A stretch of 12,511 nucleotides of DNA from Gemmatimonadota bacterium (GTDB taxonomy: Bacteria; Gemmatimonadota; Gemmatimonadetes; Gemmatimonadales; Gemmatimonadaceae): the NCBI GenBank assembly GCA_947475795.1, contig CANJOX010000054.1, positions 1 to 12,511 of the forward strand, in the 5' to 3' direction. The position numbers were made by a program, and so were the translations under genes. The notes beneath the pieces were generated by a model. That model worked only from the letters and a program-made list of their open reading frames with translations, did not search any database and was not told the origin of the DNA. Each line of letters starts with the position of its first letter. Position 1 is the stretch's first letter. Shown in pieces: positions 1,677-11,817 of the stretch.

Positions 1677-2597
1677 ATGGCCCACATTGTGCACATCGGT
1701 GTCATTCAGGACACCGCGACGGACGATCTCGCCGGCAACGTCACCCACGCCATCGCCCGCGTACGCGAAGCGGCGGCGCGCGGCGCGCAGATCATCTGCC
1801 TGCAGGAACTCTTCAACGCGCCGTACTTCTGCAAGAGCGTCAAGCCCGAACGGTTTGACATCGCCGAGCCGGCCGACGGCCCCACGGTGCAGACGTTTCA
1901 GGCGCTCGCGCGTGAACTCGATGTGGTCATCGTGGTGCCGTTCTACGAACGCGAGGCCGCGGGGCTGTACCGCAACTCGGCCACCGTGATCGATGCCGAC
2001 GGCCGTGTGCTCGGGACGTATCGCAAGATGCATATCCCGCACGATCCGCTCTTCGAGGAGAAGTATTACTTCGCCCCCGGTGACGTGACGGGCGACCAGC
2101 GCCACGACACGCATCCGGGCATCAACGGGTTCCGGGTGTGGCGCACGAAGTACGCCGACATCGGGGTGTTGATCTGCTGGGATCAGTGGTACCCGGAGGC
2201 CGCACGTATCACGGCCCTGCTGGGCGCGCAGATTCTGTTCTACCCCACGGCGATCGCGTGGCACCCCGCCGAGAAGGCCACCTTCGGCGACGCGCAGGTC
2301 GATGCGTGGCGCACCGCGCAGCGCGCGCATGCGATCGCCAACGGCGTGTTTGTGGCCTCGCCCAACCGCGTGGGCTTCGAGGCGGAGCCGGGCACCGACG
2401 GGCTGGAGTTCTTCGGGCAGTCGTTCATCGCCGATCCGTTCGGACGCTATCTCGCCCAGGCCGGCACGACGCCGGAGATTCTGGTGGCCGCGTGTGACCT
2501 TGGCCTGATCGAGGAGACGCGCCGTAACTGGCCGTTCCTGCGCGATCGTCGCATCGATGCGTACGGGCCGATCACGCAGCGCTGGCTGGGACGTTGA
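1677..2597 (+). CDS. aguB: N-carbamoylputrescine amidase
   Basis: The protein (306 residues) is a nitrilase-superfamily amidase that hydrolyses N-carbamoylputrescine to putrescine, CO2 and ammonia in the cytoplasm. The catalytic triad is visible: Glu44 in CLQELFNAPYFC, Lys117 in YRKMHIPHDP and Cys167 in LICWDQWYPEAAR. The HIPHDPLFEEKYYFAPGD stretch and the Trp-rich segment after the Cys are typical of AguB rather than of other nitrilases. Length is normal for the family. The start is ATG 1677, with no Shine-Dalgarno sequence. A weak -10-like TGACTT at 1665-1670 has the same six-base spacing as the leaderless starts elsewhere in the window. The stop overlaps the start of aguA (TTGA), so the two enzymes of the pathway are translationally coupled. 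Confidence 0.93.
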   Translation: MAHIVHIGVIQDTATDDLAGNVTHAIARVREAAARGAQIICLQELFNAPYFCKSVKPERFDIAEPADGPTVQTFQALARELDVVIVVPFYEREAAGLYRNSATVIDADGRVLGTYRKMHIPHDPLFEEKYYFAPGDVTGDQRHDTHPGINGFRVWRTKYADIGVLICWDQWYPEAARITALLGAQILFYPTAIAWHPAEKATFGDAQVDAWRTAQRAHAIANGVFVASPNRVGFEAEPGTDGLEFFGQSFIADPFGRYLAQAGTTPEILVAACDLGLIEETRRNWPFLRDRRIDAYGPITQRWLGR

Positions 2598-3670
2598 GCG
2601 GATTGATCGCGCCCACGGCGCTCGGTCCGGTGCGGATGCCCGCCGAGTGGGAGCGCCACGACGCCACGTGGATCGGCTGGCCCACGCACGAACCCGATTG
2701 GCCCGGCAAGTTCGCCCCGATCCCGTGGGTGTACGCCGAGATCGTGCGTGCCCTCGCGCCGCACGAACGGGTTGAGATTCTGTGTCAGGACGACGCCGTG
2801 TGCGACAGTGCGCGCGCCGCGTTGACCATGCACGATGTCGATCCCGCGCGGTACCGCCTGCACGTGCAGCCCACCGATCGCGTCTGGCTGCGCGACTCGG
2901 GGCCCACCGCGGTGCACCGCGCCGACGGCCGCGTGGCGCTGGTGCACTGGGGATTCGACGCGTGGAGCAAGTACGACAACTACGCGCTCGATGGGCATGT
3001 GCCCGAGGCGGTATCCCGCGTGACGGCGTTGCCGCGCGTGGAAGCGGTGCGCCACGACAACGGCCAGCGGCTCATTCTCGAGGGCGGCGGCATCGAGACC
3101 GACGGTCAGGGCACGCTGCTGGTGACCGAGGAGTGGCTGCTCTCGGACGTCCAGGTGCGCAATCCCGGCTTCACGCGCGCCGACTACGAGCGCGCCTTTC
3201 ACCAGTACCTCGGCATCACGCGCACCATCTGGTTGGGCGAGGGGTGTGTGGGCGATGACACCCACGGGCACGTGGACGACATCGCGCGGTTCGTGGCGCC
3301 CGGCATGATCGTGCTGGCGCACGAGGAGGATCCGGCCGACGAGAACCACGCACGCTCGCTCGACAATCTGCACCGCCTGCACCACGCCACGGATGCGCGC
3401 GGTGAACCGCTGGAAGTCGTCACGCTGCCGTATCCGCGTGCGGTGATCATGGACGGAACGCGCCTGCCGGCCAGCTACGCGAACTTCTACATCGCCAACG
3501 GAGTGTGCCTGGTGCCCACGTTCAACGACCCGAACGACCGTGTCGCCCTGAACACCATGGCGGCGCTGCTGCCGGAGCACCGCGTCGTGGGAATCCACGC
3601 GGTCGATCTGGTGTGGGGGCTGGGCACGTTGCACTGCCTCAGCCAGCAGCAGCCCGCGGCGGCCTCATGA
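2594..3670 (+). CDS. aguA: Agmatine deiminase
   Basis: The protein (358 residues) belongs to the Porphyromonas-type peptidyl-arginine deiminase fold and converts agmatine to N-carbamoylputrescine and ammonia, the substrate of AguB next door. Motifs seen: MPAEWERHDATWIGWP at 15-30, WLRDSGPT at 98-105, EGGG at 163-166, HGHVDDIARF at 224-233 (His226 and Asp228 fit the HxD catalytic pair), and the nucleophile Cys348 in GLGTLHCLSQQQP. I chose the TTG start at 2594, overlapping the aguB stop by four bases, because the residues before MPAEW resemble the usual N-terminus. GTG 2630 or ATG 2636 are alternatives and would cut into the conserved beginning. With AguB it forms a complete agmatine-to-putrescine route. 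Arginine decarboxylase must be elsewhere, or agmatine is taken up. Confidence 0.94.
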   Translation: MSGLIAPTALGPVRMPAEWERHDATWIGWPTHEPDWPGKFAPIPWVYAEIVRALAPHERVEILCQDDAVCDSARAALTMHDVDPARYRLHVQPTDRVWLRDSGPTAVHRADGRVALVHWGFDAWSKYDNYALDGHVPEAVSRVTALPRVEAVRHDNGQRLILEGGGIETDGQGTLLVTEEWLLSDVQVRNPGFTRADYERAFHQYLGITRTIWLGEGCVGDDTHGHVDDIARFVAPGMIVLAHEEDPADENHARSLDNLHRLHHATDARGEPLEVVTLPYPRAVIMDGTRLPASYANFYIANGVCLVPTFNDPNDRVALNTMAALLPEHRVVGIHAVDLVWGLGTLHCLSQQQPAAAS

Positions 3671-4341: not shown

Positions 4342-4375
4342 GTGACGCGCCGCACGGCTGGAGTGTTGTACCACG

Positions 4376-4912
4376 ATGACCGACGCGGAGCTGGTCGTGC
4401 GGACCCGCTCAGGTGACCCCGACGCCTTCGGAACACTGGTGTCGCGGTACTACGACGCCTGCTGGCGGTTCGCGTACCACATGCTGGGTGAACGGGCCGA
4501 TGCCGAGGACGTGGTGCAGGAGGCATTCCTGCGCGCCTATCTCGCCATCGGCCGGTACGACGAGCGCGACCAGTTCCGTGGCTGGCTGTTCCGCATTCTG
4601 ACCAACCAGTGCCGCAACGCCCTGACGTCCCGCGGGCGTCGCACCCGACGATTTATCCAGGACGAGATGGCGCTCGAGACCGCGCCGGCCCCGCCGGACG
4701 GCCTGCCCGCCGGCGTCGACGACGCCGTGCTCGTGCGGGCCCTCGGGCAGCTCGATCCGTTGCAACGTGAGGCGCTGTTGCTCAAGTACGCCGAAGGGCT
4801 CGAATACAGTGACATGTCGGCCATGACCGGTGCCGGTGAGTCCGCGCTGAAAATGCGCGTCAAACGCGGCAGTGAACGGCTGCGCGCACTGATCGGGAGG
4901 TCGCTTGACTGA
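4376..4912 (+). CDS. ECF-type RNA polymerase sigma factor
   Basis: The protein (178 residues) has the two-domain layout of extracytoplasmic-function sigma factors. Sigma region 2 spans about 16-88, with FGTLVSRYYDACWRFAYHML, then AEDVVQEAFLRAY (44-55) and FRGWLFRILTNQCRNAL (67-83). A linker rich in Ala/Pro follows, then region 4 at about 115-172 (LGQLDPLQREALLLKYAEGL, ending in ALKMRVKRGSERLR). It directs RNA polymerase to stress or envelope promoters. Its stop overlaps the next gene by eight bases, and that gene encodes a likely membrane anti-sigma factor, the classic pairing. Start is ATG 4376 after a 76 bp gap. I could not recognise an obvious ECF-type -35/-10 pair upstream, so autoregulation is unproven. 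Confidence 0.92.
   Translation: MTDAELVVRTRSGDPDAFGTLVSRYYDACWRFAYHMLGERADAEDVVQEAFLRAYLAIGRYDERDQFRGWLFRILTNQCRNALTSRGRRTRRFIQDEMALETAPAPPDGLPAGVDDAVLVRALGQLDPLQREALLLKYAEGLEYSDMSAMTGAGESALKMRVKRGSERLRALIGRSLD
4895..4900 (+). promoter_or_regulatory. Ribosome binding site that fixes a TTG start
   Basis: GGGAGG ends four bases before the TTG at 4905, inside the end of the sigma-factor gene. It supports the TTG as the real start of the putative anti-sigma gene and an eight-base overlap (TTGACTGA) between the two genes. Confidence 0.55.
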
Positions 4913-5465
4913 CCCACGTGAGGAGCCGGGATACTGGGTGGACGACGAGGCGCTCGCCGCGCAGGTGCGCGCGTCGTACGCGGCGCTGCCCGCGCCCGAT
5001 GCCGCCCTGATCGCCCGCTGCACCACGGCGGTGCTGGCCGCCGCCATGCATGCGCCGCGTCACCCCTGGGGCGGGGCATTGCGCCCGCGCTGGTGGTGGG
5101 GCGCGGCGGCCGCGGCGGCGCTGCTCGTGACGGTGAGCGTGCGCCCGTGGCGCCCTGTCGCCACGCAGCCCGTGGGGGCCACCATCGAGAGCACCGACGC
5201 CGTACGCTTCGACCTGCAATTGCCGGAGCGTGCCCGCGCGGTGGCCCTCGTGGGTGACTTCAACGGCTGGGACGAACAGGCGACGCCGATGGTCCGGCGG
5301 CGGCAGGACGGGGCCTGGTCGGCGCGCGTTCCCCTGCCTCCCGGACGCCACGTGTATGCGTTCGTCATCGACGGGCGCCGATGGCTGGTGGACCCGTTGG
5401 CCCCACAGGTTCCCGACGTCGGCTACGGCCCCGCCAACGCGGTCATCGTGGACGGTCGGCCGTGA
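4905..5465 (+). CDS. Putative membrane anti-sigma factor with extracytoplasmic AMPK-beta/CBM48-like domain
   Basis: This 186-residue protein has three parts. An N-terminal ~60 residues, presumably cytoplasmic, lacks the HxxxCxxC zinc motif of common anti-sigma domains. One membrane segment lies near 62-79 (WWWGAAAAAALLVTVSV), just after an arginine-containing flank. The extracytoplasmic domain at about 98-186 resembles the glycogen-binding module of AMPK-beta: VGDFNGWD at 116-123, PPGRHVYAFVIDGRRW at 145-160, VDP, and a closing YGPANAVIVDG. Trp122, Trp160 and Asn178 align with sugar-contacting residues of AMPK-beta (from memory), while its lysine is replaced by Ala152. Position after the ECF sigma gene, with an eight-base overlap, argues for an anti-sigma role; the domain would be the sensor. 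The TTG start is backed by GGGAGG. The role is inferred, and no direct anti-sigma motif is seen. Confidence 0.72.
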   Translation: MTDPREEPGYWVDDEALAAQVRASYAALPAPDAALIARCTTAVLAAAMHAPRHPWGGALRPRWWWGAAAAAALLVTVSVRPWRPVATQPVGATIESTDAVRFDLQLPERARAVALVGDFNGWDEQATPMVRRRQDGAWSARVPLPPGRHVYAFVIDGRRWLVDPLAPQVPDVGYGPANAVIVDGRP

Positions 5466-6229
5466 TGGCGCCACGCCCCACCCTGGGTCGCGGCGCGCGG
5501 TGGGTACTGGCCGCCTTGCTCGGCGCGCCGGCCTTCTCGCCACTGGCCGCCTCCGGAGCGGCAGCGGCCCCCGCCATTGTGTCGGCGGCGTCGGCCACCG
5601 CCCTCCCAATCGGGATCGACACCCTCCTGTATCGCGACGGGCAGGGGCAGTTCGACGCGGCCCGCTTCGACACGCTCACGGCCAGCGCGTTACGCGCGCT
5701 GCTCGACGATGCGGCCGCGCGGGGGCTGCCGACCGCGCCGCTCATCAACCGGGCGCTCGAAGGGGCCGCGCGACGGGTGGGGGGCGCGCGCATCCTCACG
5801 GTCGTGCGCGCACACGCCGCCGCCTTGGCCGACGCCAAAGTCGCGCTCGGCGAGCGGAGTTCCGTGGCCGAGCTCGACGCGGGTGCCACGGCGATCCGCG
5901 CCGGTGTCGACGCGCCGCTGCTCGCCGCGGTGCGCCGCGCCCGTCCGCTGGGCGCGGCCGTCACGCCGCTGGTCGTACTGACCGATGTGGTCCGGCGTGG
6001 CGTGCCGGCCGAGCTCGCGCGCGACGCGGTGACCGCGATCGCCGGCCTGCCGCGCGCCGACGAGGTCCTGCTCGGGCTGCAATCCACCGTGGCCAAAAAT
6101 GCGCAGCGCGGTCCCGGCATGGCCGTCGATGCCCTGAATCGCTATGTTCGCGCATCGGTTGCCGGGGTCGTGTCGCCGTCCACTCCCGCGACGGGCGACC
6201 GCAAACCGGTCCGTCCTCCAGACCCGTGA
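5465..6229 (+). CDS. Secreted helical protein of unknown function in the sigma operon
   Basis: The protein has 254 residues from ATG 5465, which overlaps the previous stop by one base (TGATG); GTG 5462 directly before it is an equally possible start. A signal peptide is likely: arginines up to residue 12, a hydrophobic stretch 13-30, then an Ala-rich region with cleavage somewhere between 30 and 45. The mature part is Ala/Arg/Val-rich and predicted helical, with amphipathic segments such as LINRALEGAARRVGGARIL (93-111) and PLVVLTDVVRRGVPAELA (168-185). The tail from about 236 is polar and Pro-rich. No cysteines, lipobox or enzymatic motif are seen. I do not recognise the family. Its place between a putative anti-sigma factor and an envelope protein suggests a periplasmic accessory or signal-relay role, which is inference only. 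Confidence 0.7.
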   Translation: MAPRPTLGRGARWVLAALLGAPAFSPLAASGAAAAPAIVSAASATALPIGIDTLLYRDGQGQFDAARFDTLTASALRALLDDAAARGLPTAPLINRALEGAARRVGGARILTVVRAHAAALADAKVALGERSSVAELDAGATAIRAGVDAPLLAAVRRARPLGAAVTPLVVLTDVVRRGVPAELARDAVTAIAGLPRADEVLLGLQSTVAKNAQRGPGMAVDALNRYVRASVAGVVSPSTPATGDRKPVRPPDP

Positions 6230-7704
6230 CGCCCGCCCGCCGCCTCTCCCGCGTGTCACTTCCTCGCGCTCGCACGAGCCCGGGAGCGCCCGCCCCACGG
6301 TGTCGCCTCCTCGTCGGTCCGCGCGCGTGGGCCGCGCTGCCCGGCGCCGTCGGTGTGCTCATCTGGGCCCCGGGGCTCGCCGCGCAGGTCCGTGGCGATG
6401 CACCCATCGCGCCAGCCGCCACCATCGGTCCGGTGACCGACGCCGCCACCCTGTCGGTGTTGGGGATCGCCGCGATCCCCGACGGCACCGGCAACCCGCT
6501 CGCGCAGCGCAACGATGTCTGGCTGGGCGCCACCCAGCCGATCGGCCGCCTCGGGCGCGTGCGGTTCGCCGCCCTCGGCACCGGTACGTGGCGCGTGTAC
6601 GATGGCGTGGGGGCCGATGGCTCCCTCGAGGGCACCGTCGCCCTGCGGGCACGCGCCCGCGTGGGCGAGCAGCGCATCTGGAGCGCCATCAGTTACGGGC
6701 ATGCGTCGGTCAGCGGTAACCCGACCACCGACATCCTCAGTGCGGGCATGCCCGCGGGGATGAACGTGGGCGACTGGACCCTCCGCGCCGTCGACACCAC
6801 CGTATCGCGGCGGGTGGACGTCGGCGCCGTGAGCCGCGCCGAAGCCGGTGTGGTCACCAAGGTCGCGGGGATGGAGCTCTCACTCGGCTTCTCGGTGGAG
6901 CGCGCCACGCGGACCACGACGCAGACGCTCACGATCGACGAGAGCGATGCCATCACCCTCCCGGCGTCGATGCCGGGCGATGCGCAGCTGACGAGCCGTC
7001 GGACGACGCGATCGCTGCAGCGGCGGGACATCGCCACCGGGATCGCCTCGCTCGGCTTCGAGACCGGACCGACCACGTGGCTGGTGTCGGTCACCGCCCC
7101 CGTGGCCAGCTGGATTTCGCAGGATGCCCTCGCGCCGGTCCCGACCATGCTGCCCACCGTGGCCTCACTGGCGGTCGTCCAGCCGGTCACGGCGTGGTTG
7201 TCGCTCGTGGGGGCCGCCGCGACCAACACGGCCACCGTCGGTGGCACGGCCCTCCGCGACGAACTCGGCACCAGCCGCCGCCGGTTTGCGCCGGTCGTGG
7301 CGCTGGGCGTCCGCATTGCCCGCCTGCCGGCACACGGCACGGACGGCACCCCGCGCGGGATCCTCGCGTTCGAAACGCGTACCATCGGCGCCGTCGATGC
7401 GATGACCGTGTCCGACGGGGTGAGCGCACCTGACGGCGACACCCTGCGCGTGGTGCTGCTGATCGACGCCCCGCGGGCGGAGTCGGTGGAGTTGATGGGC
7501 GACGCCACCGAATGGACGGTGACGCCGCTGCGGCGCATCCAGAGCGGCCGGTGGCGCGCGGAGCTCAAGCTCGCCCCCGGGGTGCACCGCGTCACGGTGC
7601 GCGCCGACGGTGGCGCGTGGATCGCACCACCCGGCCTGCCCATCGGCAACGACGACTACGGCAGCCCGGTGGGCATGATCGTGGTGCGCGGCAAGCGCCC
7701 CTGA
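6226..7704 (+). CDS. Secreted beta-rich envelope protein with C-terminal CBM48-like domain
   Basis: The protein has 492 residues from GTG 6226, which overlaps the previous stop (GTGA); GTG 6253 is an alternative. An arginine-rich start is followed by a hydrophobic stretch (about 33-52) ending in LAAQ, a likely signal peptidase site. Residues about 60-395 alternate hydrophobic and polar residues, with many Thr, Gly and Val, as in beta-barrel or beta-sandwich outer-membrane proteins. Residues 405-492 repeat the AMPK-beta/CBM48-like domain of the putative anti-sigma protein: GDATEW (425-430), LAPGVH, DGGAW (461-465) and a closing DDYGSPVGMIVVRGKRP. Trp430 and Trp465 match the putative sugar-facing tryptophans; the asparagine is not kept. 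I infer an outer-membrane or surface-exposed protein acting with the sigma system. A true barrel is not proven. Confidence 0.72.
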   Translation: MTPARRLSRVSLPRARTSPGAPAPRCRLLVGPRAWAALPGAVGVLIWAPGLAAQVRGDAPIAPAATIGPVTDAATLSVLGIAAIPDGTGNPLAQRNDVWLGATQPIGRLGRVRFAALGTGTWRVYDGVGADGSLEGTVALRARARVGEQRIWSAISYGHASVSGNPTTDILSAGMPAGMNVGDWTLRAVDTTVSRRVDVGAVSRAEAGVVTKVAGMELSLGFSVERATRTTTQTLTIDESDAITLPASMPGDAQLTSRRTTRSLQRRDIATGIASLGFETGPTTWLVSVTAPVASWISQDALAPVPTMLPTVASLAVVQPVTAWLSLVGAAATNTATVGGTALRDELGTSRRRFAPVVALGVRIARLPAHGTDGTPRGILAFETRTIGAVDAMTVSDGVSAPDGDTLRVVLLIDAPRAESVELMGDATEWTVTPLRRIQSGRWRAELKLAPGVHRVTVRADGGAWIAPPGLPIGNDDYGSPVGMIVVRGKRP

Positions 7705-7716
7705 GTTACTTGCCGC
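7688..7716. terminator. Inverted repeat across two convergent stop codons (possible bidirectional terminator)
   Basis: GCGGCAAG at 7688-7695 pairs perfectly with CTTGCCGC at 7709-7716, leaving a 13-base loop that holds both stop codons (TGA 7702-7704 on plus, TAA 7708-7706 on minus). The two genes end with a single base between their stops. No T-run follows on either strand, so efficiency as an intrinsic terminator is uncertain. Confidence 0.45.
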
Positions 7717-9541
7717 CCTTCACGCGGATCACCTGCGTCGTGCTGTCCGTCATGCCACCGCCCGACACCATCAGCGTGAACTGGTAGTCCCCCGCGGGCA
7801 CCTGCGGGAAATTGATGTTCAGGCTGCGTCCCGGTCCGCCGTCCGGCCGACCATTGTCGTTGTACTTGATCGACACCGGCGTCACGGCTTTCGACAGCCC
7901 GAACGAGCTGCCCAGTTTCTGCAGGAAGCCTGCCCCCACACGCGTGGCGCGCAGCGACACCTGCAACGGCTGCCCCGGCGTGGCCGGCCGGTACATCTCC
8001 CAGTAGATGCCGATCGACGTGCCCGCTTCGATCTCGTTGCTGCCATACGCCTGCAGCGCATTCCGCTCCAGCATCGGCGTGGCCGACACGTCGCCGCGCT
8101 GCAGCAGCAGATACTCGGAGAGACGTGTGCCCGCCGGGAGCGGCTGCACCGCGGTGCGCACGCGGGCGGCACGCTTGCCGACTGGGGCGAGTACCTCGAG
8201 GCTGGCCACCATCTTCGTAGGCAGAGGCAGCAGCAACGCCCCGTTGGCCTGTGCGCTGTCGCGCCGCGCCTGCGGCGCAGCGGTGCCATCGAACGCGTCG
8301 AGCGTCAGTGCCGCGGTGTACGGCGCGCGTCCCATTTCCAGCTCGCGCATGAGCCGGTAGCCACCGGCCAGAATCGTGGTATCGCCGCGCAGGAACCGCG
8401 CGAACTGATACGGCAGCGCCCCGAAGCCGCTGGCGTACCGCGGCGCGTACCGCATGCGGGCCTTCGCGCGGCGCGGATTCCAGTCGCCCGCCGTCGCCGC
8501 GACCGGCGTGGCCATGGCCGCGGGGAGGGGCATGAAGTCGTAGCTCGGCGTGGGCTCGTGCCCGATCACCGACGGCGGACGCGGATCGGCCACGCCACCG
8601 TTCTGCACCGACCACGCGGTGGGCCACCCGTAGCGTACCTGCGATTCGAGCAGGTCGTCGCCCCACTGCAGGTCGTAGGGAATACGCGCCAGCGAATGCA
8701 CCCGCGACATCGTCCGGCGCGCGTAGAGCTCGTTTTGCACGTCGTTGGCCGGCAGCATCCACAGCGGCTGCGCCAGACGCGCGATGCGCGTGTTCTCGGC
8801 CCCGCGATCGGCGCACGCCGTGGCCTTGTACGCCGCGTGCATCGTGGGATCGAGCCACCACGTCATGTCCGTCCACACGCACCGTTGCGCCGGTGGCATC
8901 GTGGACAACGCCCGCGCAAACGCGGCCGTAGCGCTCTGGTGCTGGTTGGCGTTGTGCAGCGCGAGCCCTTCGAGGGCGCTGCACCACCACCCCGTCCCGG
9001 CGCACGCGCGCGCCGCCGCCACGGCGACCTCGCGCTGCTCCGATTCGATCGCGTAGCGCACGCGCATGCCACTGACCCAGTCGTCCTTGGGATCGGCCGC
9101 CTGCGCCTGCGTGAGCAACTCCATCAACTGTTCGCGCTCGAGCTTCGCATCATTGCGCTCGGCCGGCGGCGGAACATCGCCGTTATTGTTCCAGTAGCAG
9201 ATGCGCCCCAGCGGAACCTCACACGAGGCGTCGGCGCCGCCGTTGTAGAACCGCAGCCCCGTGCGATGGTTGCGTTCGAATCCATCCTGCAGTGCCCGCG
9301 CCTGGGTGCCGAGCGCACCGATCGCCGACGGCGTGCCGCGCAGCGGATCGGGGGCGGGCGGTGGCAGCACGACGCGGCCGGAGTCGCCGGCAGGCGGAGC
9401 GCCGACAGGCGGAGCGCCGGCCGGTGGGGCGCCGGAGGACTGGGCCGACAGCGTGGGGGCCGGGCACAGCGACACCACGGCCGCGCACACCCACGAGAGC
9501 CGGGCGGCGGCGACGAACCAGCGACGACGGATCTGATGCAC
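7706..9541 (-). CDS. Large secreted protein of unknown function with GWxTD-like patch
   Basis: The protein has 611 residues from GTG 9541. That start gives a classic signal peptide (MHQIRRRWF, then a hydrophobic run, cleavage after LSA at residue 33), and AGGAG lies ten bases upstream. ATG 9583 would add 14 residues and has no ribosome site, but it cannot be excluded. A Pro-rich linker holds three GAPPx repeats (37-51). Residues about 125-235 look helical, TPR-like, and the N-terminal half of the mature protein carries six cysteines (three possible disulfides). A patch near 290-320, LQWGDDLLESQVRYGWPTAW, recalls the start of GWxTD domains. The C-terminal ~200 residues look beta-rich, with IGIYWEMYRP and a closing VPAGDYQFTLMVSG segment. 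It is probably periplasmic or surface-associated. I do not recognise a precise family, and no enzymatic residues are obvious. Confidence 0.75.
   Translation of the reverse strand: MHQIRRRWFVAAARLSWVCAAVVSLCPAPTLSAQSSGAPPAGAPPVGAPPAGDSGRVVLPPPAPDPLRGTPSAIGALGTQARALQDGFERNHRTGLRFYNGGADASCEVPLGRICYWNNNGDVPPPAERNDAKLEREQLMELLTQAQAADPKDDWVSGMRVRYAIESEQREVAVAAARACAGTGWWCSALEGLALHNANQHQSATAAFARALSTMPPAQRCVWTDMTWWLDPTMHAAYKATACADRGAENTRIARLAQPLWMLPANDVQNELYARRTMSRVHSLARIPYDLQWGDDLLESQVRYGWPTAWSVQNGGVADPRPPSVIGHEPTPSYDFMPLPAAMATPVAATAGDWNPRRAKARMRYAPRYASGFGALPYQFARFLRGDTTILAGGYRLMRELEMGRAPYTAALTLDAFDGTAAPQARRDSAQANGALLLPLPTKMVASLEVLAPVGKRAARVRTAVQPLPAGTRLSEYLLLQRGDVSATPMLERNALQAYGSNEIEAGTSIGIYWEMYRPATPGQPLQVSLRATRVGAGFLQKLGSSFGLSKAVTPVSIKYNDNGRPDGGPGRSLNINFPQVPAGDYQFTLMVSGGGMTDSTTQVIRVKGGK
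9386..9430. repeat. Three tandem 15-bp units encoding GAPPx
   Basis: Units at 9386-9400, 9401-9415 and 9416-9430. The first two differ by one base and the third by three from the first. On the minus strand they encode GAPPA, GAPPV, GAPPA directly after the signal peptide. Slippage could expand or shrink this linker between strains. Confidence 0.75.
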
Positions 9542-9551
9542 GAAGGGCCTG

Positions 9552-9556
9552 CTCCT
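9552..9556 (-). promoter_or_regulatory. Ribosome binding site for the GTG 9541 start
   Basis: AGGAG on the minus strand lies ten bases before GTG 9541. The competing ATG at 9583 has no such site, so this motif decides the start in favour of GTG. Confidence 0.5.
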
Positions 9557-9608
9557 GAGAGAGGACGACGCACCGATCAGCATGCCGGCGCGTCGGACAG
9601 ATCGAGGG

Positions 9609-10438: not shown

Positions 10439-11176
10439 ATGACCGAGATTCTTTCCCCGTCCGCGTCGCCCGGCGCCGCGCCCCCGCCGCGTCCCGCCGT
10501 CGTCCTCCTGTCCGGAGGCCTCGACTCGGCCACCGCCCTCGCGGTGGCCCGGCGCGACGGATTCACGCCGTACGCCATGACCTTCCGTTACGGCCAGCGG
10601 CACTCGGTCGAGATCGACGCGGCCCGGCGGGTGGCGGCGGCACAGGGCGTGGCCCGCCACGTCGTGGTGGATATCGACCTGCGGCAGTGGGGCGGATCGG
10701 CGCTCACCGGGGATGCGGAAGTCCCCAAGGATCGCGACGTGGCCCATCCCTCCGACGAGATTCCGGTCACCTACGTGCCGGCGCGCAACACGATCTTCCT
10801 GTCGTTCGCGCTGGCCTGGGCCGAGACGCTGGGGGCAGACGCGATCTTCATCGGGGTGAATGCGCTGGACTACTCCGGCTACCCGGACTGCCGCCCGGAA
10901 TACATCGCCGCGTTCGAGCAGATGGCCAATCTCGCCACCCGTGCAGGGGTGGAGGGCACGCACCGGCTCACCATTCACGCGCCGCTGCAGCACCTCACCA
11001 AGGCCGACATCGTGCGCTTGGGCGCGTCGCTGGGCGTGGACTACGCGATCACCACCAGTTGCTACGATCCGGCGGCCGATGGCACCGCCTGCGGACACTG
11101 CGACGCCTGCCAGTTGCGGCGGCGCGGATTCGCCGAGGCGGGGTCCCCCGATCCGATCGCCTACGCGGTGGGCTGA
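10439..11176 (+). CDS. queC: 7-cyano-7-deazaguanine synthase
   Basis: The protein (245 residues) uses ATP and ammonia to turn 7-carboxy-7-deazaguanine into preQ0, the precursor of queuosine and archaeosine bases. Seen: the PP-loop ATP motif SGGLDSAT at 25-32, [11 protein letters not shown] at 49-59, [16 protein letters not shown] at 114-129, [18 protein letters not shown] at 139-156, and zinc ligands Cys208, Cys218, Cys221 and Cys224 (SCYDP...CGHCDAC). All expected motifs are intact. The first ~18 residues are a Ser/Pro/Ala-rich tail before the first beta strand. The start at ATG 10439 has a -10-like hexamer six bases upstream and no ribosome site. Two bases separate its stop from queE, whose product feeds it. 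Confidence 0.96.
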
Positions 11177-11178
11177 CG

Positions 11179-11817
11179 ATGGCGTACACGGTGAAGGAGT
11201 GTTTCTACACCCTGCAGGGCGAGGGGGTACAGGCCGGCCGGGCGGCGGTGTTCTGCCGTTTCGCCGGCTGCAATCTGTGGACTGGGCGTGAAGCCGACCG
11301 GGCTACGGCCGTCTGCACGTTTTGCGATACCGATTTCGTGGGCGTGGGGCCGGACGGCGGCAAGTTCGCCACGGCCGCCGAGCTGGCGGCCTTCGTGAAG
11401 AGCCGATGGCCGGCCGATGCCCCGGCGGATGTGCGGCCGTTCGTGGTGTGCACGGGCGGCGAGCCCCTGCTGCAGCTGGACGCCGCCGCCGTGGCGGCGC
11501 TGCACGCCGAGGGGTTCGAGATCGCCGTCGAGACCAATGGGACGCAGGTGGCGCCGGCCGGTCTCGACTGGATCTGCGTAAGCCCCAAGGCCAACGCGCC
11601 GCTGGTCCAGACCCGGGGCGACGAGCTCAAGCTGGTCTTCCCCCAGCCCACCGCGCGCCCCGAACGGTTCGAGGGGCTCGATTTCCGGCACTTCCTGCTG
11701 CAGCCCATGGACGGCCCCCGCGCGGCGGAGAACACGGCCGCAGCCCTCGCCTACTGTCTGGCGCACCCGCGCTGGCGGCTGTCGGTGCAGACCCACAAGG
11801 CGCTCAACATCCGCTGA
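11179..11817 (+). CDS. queE: 7-carboxy-7-deazaguanine synthase (radical SAM)
   Basis: The protein (212 residues) rearranges 6-carboxytetrahydropterin to 7-carboxy-7-deazaguanine, one step before QueC. The iron-sulphur cluster cysteines are Cys31, Cys46 and Cys49, a CX14CX2C spacing rather than the usual radical-SAM CX3CX2C. This longer spacing is known from the Burkholderia-type QueE. Other motifs: YTLQGEGVQAGRAAVFCRFAGC at 10-31 (substrate/SAM region), CDTDF at 49-53, VCTGGEPLLQLD near 94-105, ETNGT near 119-123, and SPKAN near 134-138. Length is typical. It begins two bases after queC, so the pair is one operon. queD and queF are not here. Confidence 0.95.
   Translation: MAYTVKECFYTLQGEGVQAGRAAVFCRFAGCNLWTGREADRATAVCTFCDTDFVGVGPDGGKFATAAELAAFVKSRWPADAPADVRPFVVCTGGEPLLQLDAAAVAALHAEGFEIAVETNGTQVAPAGLDWICVSPKANAPLVQTRGDELKLVFPQPTARPERFEGLDFRHFLLQPMDGPRAAENTAAALAYCLAHPRWRLSVQTHKALNIR

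What the first reader, a model, noticed from the sequence alone, without database searches (positions are those of the whole stretch)
4376..7704. ECF sigma operon with a CBM48-like domain on both the putative anti-sigma protein and an envelope protein
Four genes overlap by 8, 1 and 4 bases. The second encodes a one-pass membrane protein whose outer domain resembles the glycogen-binding module of AMPK-beta. The fourth encodes a secreted beta-rich protein ending in the same type of domain. The two domains align over about 85 residues, both having GD....W, a PG.H turn, DG..W, a Pro-rich loop, DxGYG/DDYG and I(V)V.G.RP at the very end. One inference is a surface-signalling circuit (by analogy with FecI/FecR/FecA) in which the two domains sense the same glycan or compete for it. 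An intracellular-type glycogen module used as an anti-sigma sensor is unusual.
Basis: partly seen in the sequence, partly recalled or inferred. Interest (0 to 1): 0.75.

Follow-up and report, generated by a model that had tools for sequence, protein, structure and literature searches.

The report
Glycogen-module anti-sigma signalling cassette
A bacterium related to Gemmatimonas carries a gene-control switch whose membrane brake seems to have an outer domain shaped like the glycogen-binding part of animal AMPK, and switches of the same build occur in several bacterial phyla and may turn on nutrient-uptake genes.

Summary
Window 4376-7704 encodes, in one overlapping operon, an ECF sigma factor, a one-pass membrane protein with a C-terminal CBM48/AMPK-beta module, a helical exported-type protein of no known family, and an outer-membrane-type beta-barrel ending in a second CBM48. 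The cassette recurs across Gemmatimonadota and in loci titled as Balneolota, Nitrospirota, Desulfobacterota relatives, Rokubacteria and Latescibacterota; 78 of 80 loci of one scan carry the sigma gene. In relatives with a long N-terminus that segment matches RseA and RsiW, so the CBM48 protein is a class I anti-sigma factor; for the window's short N-terminus this is inferred. A promoter-like GTGACG-N16-TGTTGT lies 6 bases before the sigma ATG and recurs upstream of SusC/SusD-type importers in the genus. Both glucan-platform tryptophans are nearly invariant in both modules. Best reading: an autoregulated circuit in which a periplasmic alpha-glucan-type ligand, or contact with the barrel's CBM48 tail, releases sigma. 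The FecA analogy is only partial: no FecR or TonB-transducer domain, and the second CBM48 is probably periplasmic. Ligand and trigger are untested.

The parts
4342..4369 (+). Candidate autoregulatory ECF promoter GTGACG-N16-TGTTGT, 6 bases before the sigma ATG (transcript would be nearly leaderless)
   Evidence: Sequence; GTGACG-N16-TGTTG at the same place in 8 of 8 wide genus orthologue loci L031-L038 (L034 ends TGTTGA); 67 exact matches in 29 of 30 genus genomes against 10 for the reversed control
4376..4912 (+). ECF sigma factor, 178 aa
   Evidence: Pfam Sigma70_r2 4.2e-20, Sigma70_r4_2 1.9e-10; TIGR02937 2.5e-28
4905..5465 (+). Putative class I anti-sigma factor, 186 aa: short cytoplasmic N-terminus (about res. 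1-60), one TM segment, periplasmic CBM48
   Evidence: CBM_48 2.5e-11; overlap with sigma by 8 bases; RseA/RsiW match of relatives' N-termini
5091..5141 (+). Single transmembrane segment (about residues 63-79)
   Evidence: Read from the sequence; not run through a TM predictor
5199..5462 (+). CBM48/AMPK-beta-type module of the second protein (residues 99-186)
5465..6229 (+). Third gene, 254 aa: signal-peptide-like start (read by eye) then all-helical domain (res. 65-232) of no known family
   Evidence: No Pfam or NCBIfam match for the window protein; AF2 pLDDT about 97 over the helical part; no PDB match at E<=0.001
6226..7704 (+). Fourth gene, 492 aa: outer-membrane-type beta-barrel with C-terminal CBM48
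   Evidence: AF2, Foldseek and VIA-align
6448..7320 (+). Predicted 12-strand beta-barrel (residues 75-365)
7438..7701 (+). CBM48 tail of the barrel protein (residues 405-492)

Best explanation
It is an autoregulated ECF sigma/anti-sigma circuit of the cell envelope. Shown for the family by homology: the CBM48 membrane protein is an RseA/RsiW-type (class I) anti-sigma factor with a glycogen-module sensor domain, and it travels with its sigma gene, a helical exported-type protein and often a second CBM48 envelope protein. Inferred for the window: the N-terminus holds sigma in the cytoplasm; the CBM48 sits in the periplasm and binds an alpha-glucan-type oligosaccharide, or the CBM48-tailed barrel (or both through one glycan); occupancy changes the anti-sigma protein's stability (probably regulated proteolysis as for RseA/FecR) and frees sigma; sigma then drives its own operon from GTGACG-N16-TGTTGT and, in Gemmatimonas, several SusC/SusD-type importers. 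The barrel would admit or sample the ligand and report outer-membrane status; the helical protein is a periplasmic partner of unknown role.
For: CBM48 in both proteins. Anti-sigma: a profile of 14 long N-termini finds only two PDB sequences better than 0.01, RseA in the sigma-E complex (1or7_C, 1.9e-6) and RsiW (5wuq_C, 0.004); that profile hits 44 of 45 Gemmatimonadota and 12 of 35 other loci (two of the 12 without a phylum in the title) at E<1e-3. Synteny: window's four-gene order in 28 of 40 regions; sigma, CBM48 protein and helical gene in 20 of 20 further regions, second CBM48 gene in 17; sigma gene in 78 of 80 named loci. Regulon: GTGACG-N16-KGTT in 11 of 26 SusC upstream regions (4 of the 11 led to the test), at most 1 at any other spacing 10-22, reversed and swapped controls 0, reverse complement 2, shuffles mean 0.07. 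Autoregulation: GTGAC-N17/18-[TGC]GT[TC] before 20 of 51 further sigma genes, reversed control 0. Glucan platform: W100 in 114 of 114, W133 in 105 of 114 modules.
Against: The window's own N-terminus does not reach significance with the long-form anti-sigma profile (E 0.07) and is lost on iteration. No family named as anti-sigma in 36 of 36 proteins by Pfam. The SusC link is absent in G038 (0 of 10 SusC regions), G042 (0 of 1) and G058 (0 of 1), which carry the cassette, and the motif is not found before the sigma genes of 31 of 31 loci from other phyla. Not every cassette has the second CBM48 gene (28 of 45 and 25 of 35). No glycoside hydrolase stood out by eye beside the SusC targets, so an alpha-glucan substrate rests on the CBM48 alone. 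K126 of AMPK is not kept.
Confidence: 0.6

Rival explanations
1. The CBM48 domains are protein-contact modules, not glycan sensors: the barrel's periplasmic CBM48 tail docks on the anti-sigma CBM48 (as the FoxA signalling domain docks on FoxR) and reports barrel assembly or outer-membrane stress; sugar plays no part.
For: Both modules are predicted to be periplasmic; the second CBM48, where found, is on a barrel-type protein or, in some Nitrospirota loci, a small exported, mostly lipoprotein-like protein; RseA-type anti-sigma factors respond to envelope proteins (recalled); FoxA/FoxR contact precedent (PMC11637429, abstract).
Against: Two ligand tryptophans kept in nearly all modules of both proteins although the two kinds share only about 28-29% identity; in the second set W100 is 135 of 135 and W133 132 of 135. 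Partial distance correlation of the two modules given sigma is only 0.25. Several cassettes lack a second CBM48 gene.
Confidence: 0.25
2. The second gene is not an anti-sigma factor in the window's genus: it has lost the anti-sigma helices and is only a membrane-anchored carbohydrate-binding protein co-transcribed with an ECF sigma controlled otherwise.
For: Short N-terminus (about 60 aa), no LDGE helix-1 motif, E 0.07 with the family profile; lost on iteration.
Against: Conserved overlap with or closeness to sigma; one TM in the right place (by eye); profile-profile alignment puts window residues 15-51 on the last anti-sigma helices (probability 88; the two alignments share members); sigma and N-terminus distances correlate beyond the CBM48 (partial r 0.44).
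Confidence: 0.1
3. The GTGACG-N16-TGTTGT element belongs to another ECF factor that controls both this operon and the SusC genes; the cassette's sigma has other targets.
For: Genus genomes carry several paralogous cassettes (L039-L042, L045) and other ECF factors; those paralogous cassettes lack the element.
Against: A like element sits before many cassette sigma genes of the class with lineage-specific spacing, and in G031 four of seven SusC regions share the spacing found before the sigma gene of its cassette L054 (GTGAC-N18-GGTT).
Confidence: 0.2

Closest known systems
RseA/sigma-E and RsiW/sigma-W (class I ECF anti-sigma factors)
   Same: N-terminal anti-sigma domain matched by profile in relatives, one TM, ECF partner encoded just upstream
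   Different: Periplasmic part is a CBM48 module; helical protein and often a second CBM48 protein in the operon
RsgI anti-sigma-I factors of Clostridium thermocellum
   Same: Carbohydrate-binding modules as extracytoplasmic sensor of an anti-sigma factor (PMC6056542, passages and a cited title)
   Different: Sigma-I is set beside, not within, the ECF factors in that paper; Gram-positive; other CBM family and another anti-sigma domain; no barrel partner (recalled)
FecI/FecR/FecA-type cell-surface signalling
   Same: ECF sigma, membrane anti-sigma and an outer-membrane partner protein; importers among the likely targets
   Different: No FecR family, no TonB-dependent transducer in the cassette; 4 of 4 SusC targets scanned over their whole open frame lack an STN domain
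AMPK beta-subunit glycogen-binding domain / CBM48
   Same: Fold and ligand tryptophans
   Different: Exported, on a bacterial anti-sigma-type protein and on a barrel; K126 not kept; N150 replaced by Val in 36 of 55 barrel tails
KdgM/NanC/CymA oligosaccharide porins
   Same: Small barrels, among the best structural matches
   Different: Sequence identity only about 6-9%; no CBM48 tail in those porins (recalled); a shared fold shows no substrate

Membership tests
ECF sigma factor | Sigma regions 2 and 4 only, short protein | tested here: met
   Sigma70_r2 and Sigma70_r4_2 in 178 aa
CBM48 / AMPK1_CBM | Profile match above curated cut-off, second protein | tested here: met
   CBM_48 44.2 bits (cut-off 22.4), AMPK1_CBM 37.1 (26.8)
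CBM48 / AMPK1_CBM | Profile match above curated cut-off, fourth protein | tested here: not met
   21.5 of 26.8 and 15.9 of 22.4 bits; but the fold matches AMPK CBM and 62 of 66 relatives match at E<=1
CBM48 / AMPK1_CBM | Binding of alpha-1,4-glucan | not testable with these tools
   Only the ligand residues can be read: W100 and W133 kept
Class I (RseA/RsiW-type) anti-sigma factor | N-terminal anti-sigma domain in the family | tested here: met
   1or7_C 1.9e-6, 5wuq_C 0.004, profile built from 14 of 59 N-termini picked for the LDGE motif
Class I (RseA/RsiW-type) anti-sigma factor | The same domain in the window protein itself | tested here: inconclusive
   E 0.07; lost on iteration; indirect alignment
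Class I (RseA/RsiW-type) anti-sigma factor | Binds and inhibits sigma | not testable with these tools
   No complex prediction offered
FecI/FecR/FecA signalling | FecR-type anti-sigma domain | tested here: not met
   No such Pfam family in 36 of 36 proteins at E<=1
FecI/FecR/FecA signalling | TonB-dependent transducer with N-terminal signalling domain in the cassette | tested here: not met
   No plug or TonB receptor family in 66 of 66 fourth-gene proteins at E<=1; barrel predicted with 12 strands
RsgI anti-sigma-I | RsgI anti-sigma domain with a sigma-I partner | tested here: not met
   No RsgI family hit in 36 of 36; partner is ECF
SusC/SusD pair (targets) | TonB receptor with CarboxypepD_reg-type and Plug domains, followed by SusD | tested here: met
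   Plug and CarboxypepD_reg-type domains in 4 of 4 SusC tested, TonB barrel family in 3 of 4; SusD_RagB reached in only 1 of 3 downstream partners tested

The most novel reading that the evidence does not exclude
A cross-phylum class of ECF circuits uses an AMPK-beta-like glycogen module as the periplasmic sensor of an RseA-type anti-sigma factor, and pairs it with a second copy of the same module on an outer-membrane barrel or lipoprotein, so that one glucan held by both modules, or its loss, carries the signal across the periplasm to a sigma factor that switches on SusC/SusD importers.
Probability: 0.3. Interest if true: 0.85.

Novelty: new variant of a known kind. Interest (0 to 1): 0.7.

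Why it matters
It would add a glycan-module sensor to the large class of RseA-type anti-sigma factors, in phyla where I know of few studied ECF circuits (recalled), and propose an input and a regulon for a signalling family that is frequent in Gemmatimonadota (profile matches at E<=1e-12 in 187 of 298 genomes). The two-module design is directly testable with purified domains. In seven full-text searches no listed paper dealt with a CBM48 anti-sigma factor, to judge by titles and abstract starts; several lists were cut (20 of 29, 25 of 119, 8 of 25, 10 of 19 shown), one returned nothing, and subscription papers and preprints are not covered.

Tried and rejected
Own-assembly search was not possible (assembly not held; nearest genome G001 shares 57% of sampled words), so all genome work used relatives.

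Matched ligand within a cassette: tested by identity of own against foreign CBM48 pairs (29.0% against 28.3%; median rank 20 of 51) and left as unsupported. The distance correlations mostly show co-inheritance of the cassette.

Iterated N-terminal profile shrank to the last helix and lost the window; its shuffled control is void because the script read beyond the window entry, and is not used. The Pfam scan of single N-termini gave RseA_N in 1 of 14 at 0.04; two NCBIfam anti-sigma families in 5 of 14 each, best 0.00056 and 0.0029; for the one score shown, 16.1 bits against a cut-off of 100.

The first SusC upstream scan used the wrong strand for minus-strand loci and was replaced. Four of 30 loci were dropped there as fragments. 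In one search, 19 of 30 loci were kept (those starting near the N-terminus): 4 of 7 from G031 hold GTGAC-N18-KGTY, 0 of 12 from G038, G042 and G058; at one other spacing (N21) 2 of 19 matched. The first Pfam scan of SusC targets used gene starts cut short by my caller; one search repeated it on the whole open frames.

Motif matches not before sigma or SusC genes: of 47 distinct matched sequences in fetched loci (67 matches in all), 12 lie before sigma (10 labelled by script, 2 by position), 17 before SusC-like genes (one also inside another called frame; the 17 fall into only about half a dozen orthologous loci, judged by eye), 10 inside other called genes (two read as EF-Tu), 8 outside called genes elsewhere. 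One further family-A SusC orthologue (L180) has no good match. The second spacing peak at 14 (20 of 47) is unexplained. The loci overlap genomes, so the two sets are not independent; the scan patterns include the N150 position, so N150 counts are biased.

Helical third protein: no PDB match at E<=0.001; a fold that is not listed is not excluded. Phages: no match by tblastn.
Full report
What is there. The operon is as described: sigma 4376-4912, CBM48 membrane protein 4905-5465, third gene 5465-6229, fourth gene 6226-7704, overlapping by 8, 1 and 4 bases. Sigma has regions 2 and 4 only. The second protein's C-terminal 88 residues match CBM_48 and AMPK1_CBM above the curated cut-offs and AMPK beta-2 in the PDB by single sequence; a 36-member family profile finds a pullulanase and AMPK beta-1 first. 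The fourth protein's last 88 residues are below the cut-offs alone, but AlphaFold2 gives them pLDDT about 96 and they superpose on AMPK beta CBM structures at 1.2-1.3 A. The two window modules are 36% identical over 77 columns.

The third protein has a signal-peptide-like start (by eye) and a confident all-helical domain, no family for the window protein, only weak scattered hits among 50 relatives and no PDB match at E<=0.001. It is nearly as constant in the cassette as sigma.

Conservation. Relatives were searched by protein and profile (187 of 298 Gemmatimonadota genomes at E<=1e-12; this counts any CBM48 match that good). Forty regions were fetched because they held a CBM48 match. Of these, 28 of 40 have the window's four-gene order, 39 of 40 a sigma gene (missing in L043), 38 of 40 the helical gene, 36 of 40 a second CBM48 gene, some on the other strand or in other order. 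In 20 further regions from other families and genera, sigma, CBM48 protein and helical gene are present in 20 of 20 and the second CBM48 gene in 17 of 20. A scan of named genomes with eight class-level sequences found 111 relatives and kept 80 loci. Forty-five are from Gemmatimonadota by title or by names I recall as such; the other 35 include Balneolota and Rhodothermaceae, Nitrospirota and Thermodesulfovibrio, Pseudodesulfovibrio and Syntrophobacteraceae, Rokuibacteriota, Latescibacterota (phylum placing partly recalled) and two untitled bacteria. Sigma is found in 78 of 80 (the two others begin at a contig end), the helical gene in 44 of 45 and 32 of 35, a second long CBM48 gene in 28 of 45 and 25 of 35. 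The loci overlap the genomes of the earlier set.

Anti-sigma domain. No family named as anti-sigma matches 36 of 36 proteins in Pfam. But many relatives have a longer N-terminus with LDGE near the start and a RVMAA helix end. A profile of 14 such N-termini (picked for that motif out of 59) finds in the whole PDB, at E<=10, five sequences, the first two being RseA in the sigma-E complex (1.9e-6) and RsiW (0.004). The conserved Asp falls on RseA D11 (counted by eye in the alignment), which a coevolution study names as key contact (PMC7406223, passages). The same study reports about 79% of Gemmatimonadetes ECF factors as associated with class I anti-sigma domains. The profile hits 29 of 59 of my first set, 14 seeds included, and 44 of 45 and 12 of 35 of the second at E<1e-3. 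The window's own N-terminus is short and scores only E 0.07; profile-profile comparison aligns its residues 15-51 with the last anti-sigma helices (alignments share members). The anti-sigma role is thus shown for the family by homology and inferred for the window.

Ligand site. Mapped on AMPK beta-1 (site numbers recalled), the two platform tryptophans are kept: W100 in 59 of 59 second-gene modules and 55 of 55 barrel tails, W133 in 52 of 59 and 53 of 55; in the second set W100 135 of 135, W133 132 of 135. K126 is not kept; N150 is Asn in 44 of 59 second-gene modules but Val in 36 of 55 barrel tails. This favours carbohydrate binding by both, perhaps of different kind; it is not proof.

Promoter and regulon. 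The eight wide genus loci and the window have GTGACG-N16-TGTTG directly before sigma (window 4342-4369, six bases before ATG). The exact pattern with final T has 67 matches in 29 of 30 genus genomes against 10 for the reversed pattern. Of 47 distinct matched sequences in fetched loci, 12 are before sigma and 17 before SusC-like genes, the latter from about half a dozen orthologous loci. These are TonB receptors with CarboxypepD_reg-type and Plug domains, no STN domain in 4 of 4 whole frames scanned, followed by SusD-like genes of which one of three reached the Pfam SusD family. Turned round: among 26 SusC upstream regions from five genomes, 11 hold GTGACG-N16-KGTT, no other spacing from 10 to 22 more than 1, reversed and swapped controls 0, reverse-complement control 2, shuffles mean 0.07 and at most 2; 4 of the 11 are the exact matches that led to the test. 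In another genus (G031) 4 of 7 SusC regions have GTGAC-N18-KGTY, the spacing before the sigma gene of its cassette L054; G038, G042 and G058 show none in 12. Among 51 other cassette sigma genes (genus paralogues included), GTGAC-N17 or N18-[TGC]GT[TC] precedes 13 and 8, together 20, reversed control 0, and N17 30 of 47 in the second set; loci of other phyla show none, 0 of 31. So autoregulation is likely in much of the class, and SusC/SusD control in part of Gemmatimonadaceae. No glycoside hydrolase was evident beside the targets from the predicted proteins, but they were not all scanned.

Mechanism and rank. The best reading is an autoregulated sigma/anti-sigma circuit with a periplasmic CBM48 sensor, an outer-membrane or lipoprotein CBM48 partner and, in the genus, nutrient importers as output. 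Sigma release by proteolysis follows from RseA and FecR precedents (recalled; FoxR case PMC11637429, abstract) and is inferred. The closest idea in print that I know is RsgI, an anti-sigma-I factor with carbohydrate-binding sensors (PMC6056542, passages), but sigma class, anti-sigma domain, module family and partner proteins differ. Full-text searches listed no paper on a CBM48 anti-sigma factor, by titles and abstract starts of partly cut lists. I file it as a new variant of a known kind.

Noticed in passing
window 7706-9583 (-): A 625-aa protein without Pfam family above cut-off or NCBIfam match lies convergent to the operon and is kept beside it in 8 of 8 wide genus loci.
   Followed up: no
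window 1677-3670 (+): A carbon-nitrogen hydrolase and a PAD_porph gene lie upstream and are kept there in 8 of 8 wide genus loci.
   Followed up: no
L285:2692-3132, L297:2890-3303, L306:2748-3203, L312:2645-3025: Nitrospirota cassettes carry a small CBM48 protein before sigma, three of these four with a lipobox-like Cys, and no barrel-fused module in the fetched flanks.
   Followed up: partly
L043: A CBM48-tailed long protein and helical gene without sigma or anti-sigma gene in the fetched region.
   Followed up: no
L047, L053, L080: Cassettes with a second copy of the helical third gene.
   Followed up: no
L051, L052 (genomes G042, G058): Genomes with the cassette but only 2 and 1 matches to a Gemmatimonas SusC query, so the cassette probably has other targets there.
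   Followed up: no
L149, L153, L155, L157: The commonest SusC/SusD target lies in a conserved block with a cytochrome-c-like gene upstream and large proteins with haem-type motifs and ankyrin-like repeats downstream, read by eye from predicted proteins.
   Followed up: no
window 10439-11817 (+): QueC followed by a radical SAM gene, probably QueE (QueE by context, recalled).
   Followed up: no
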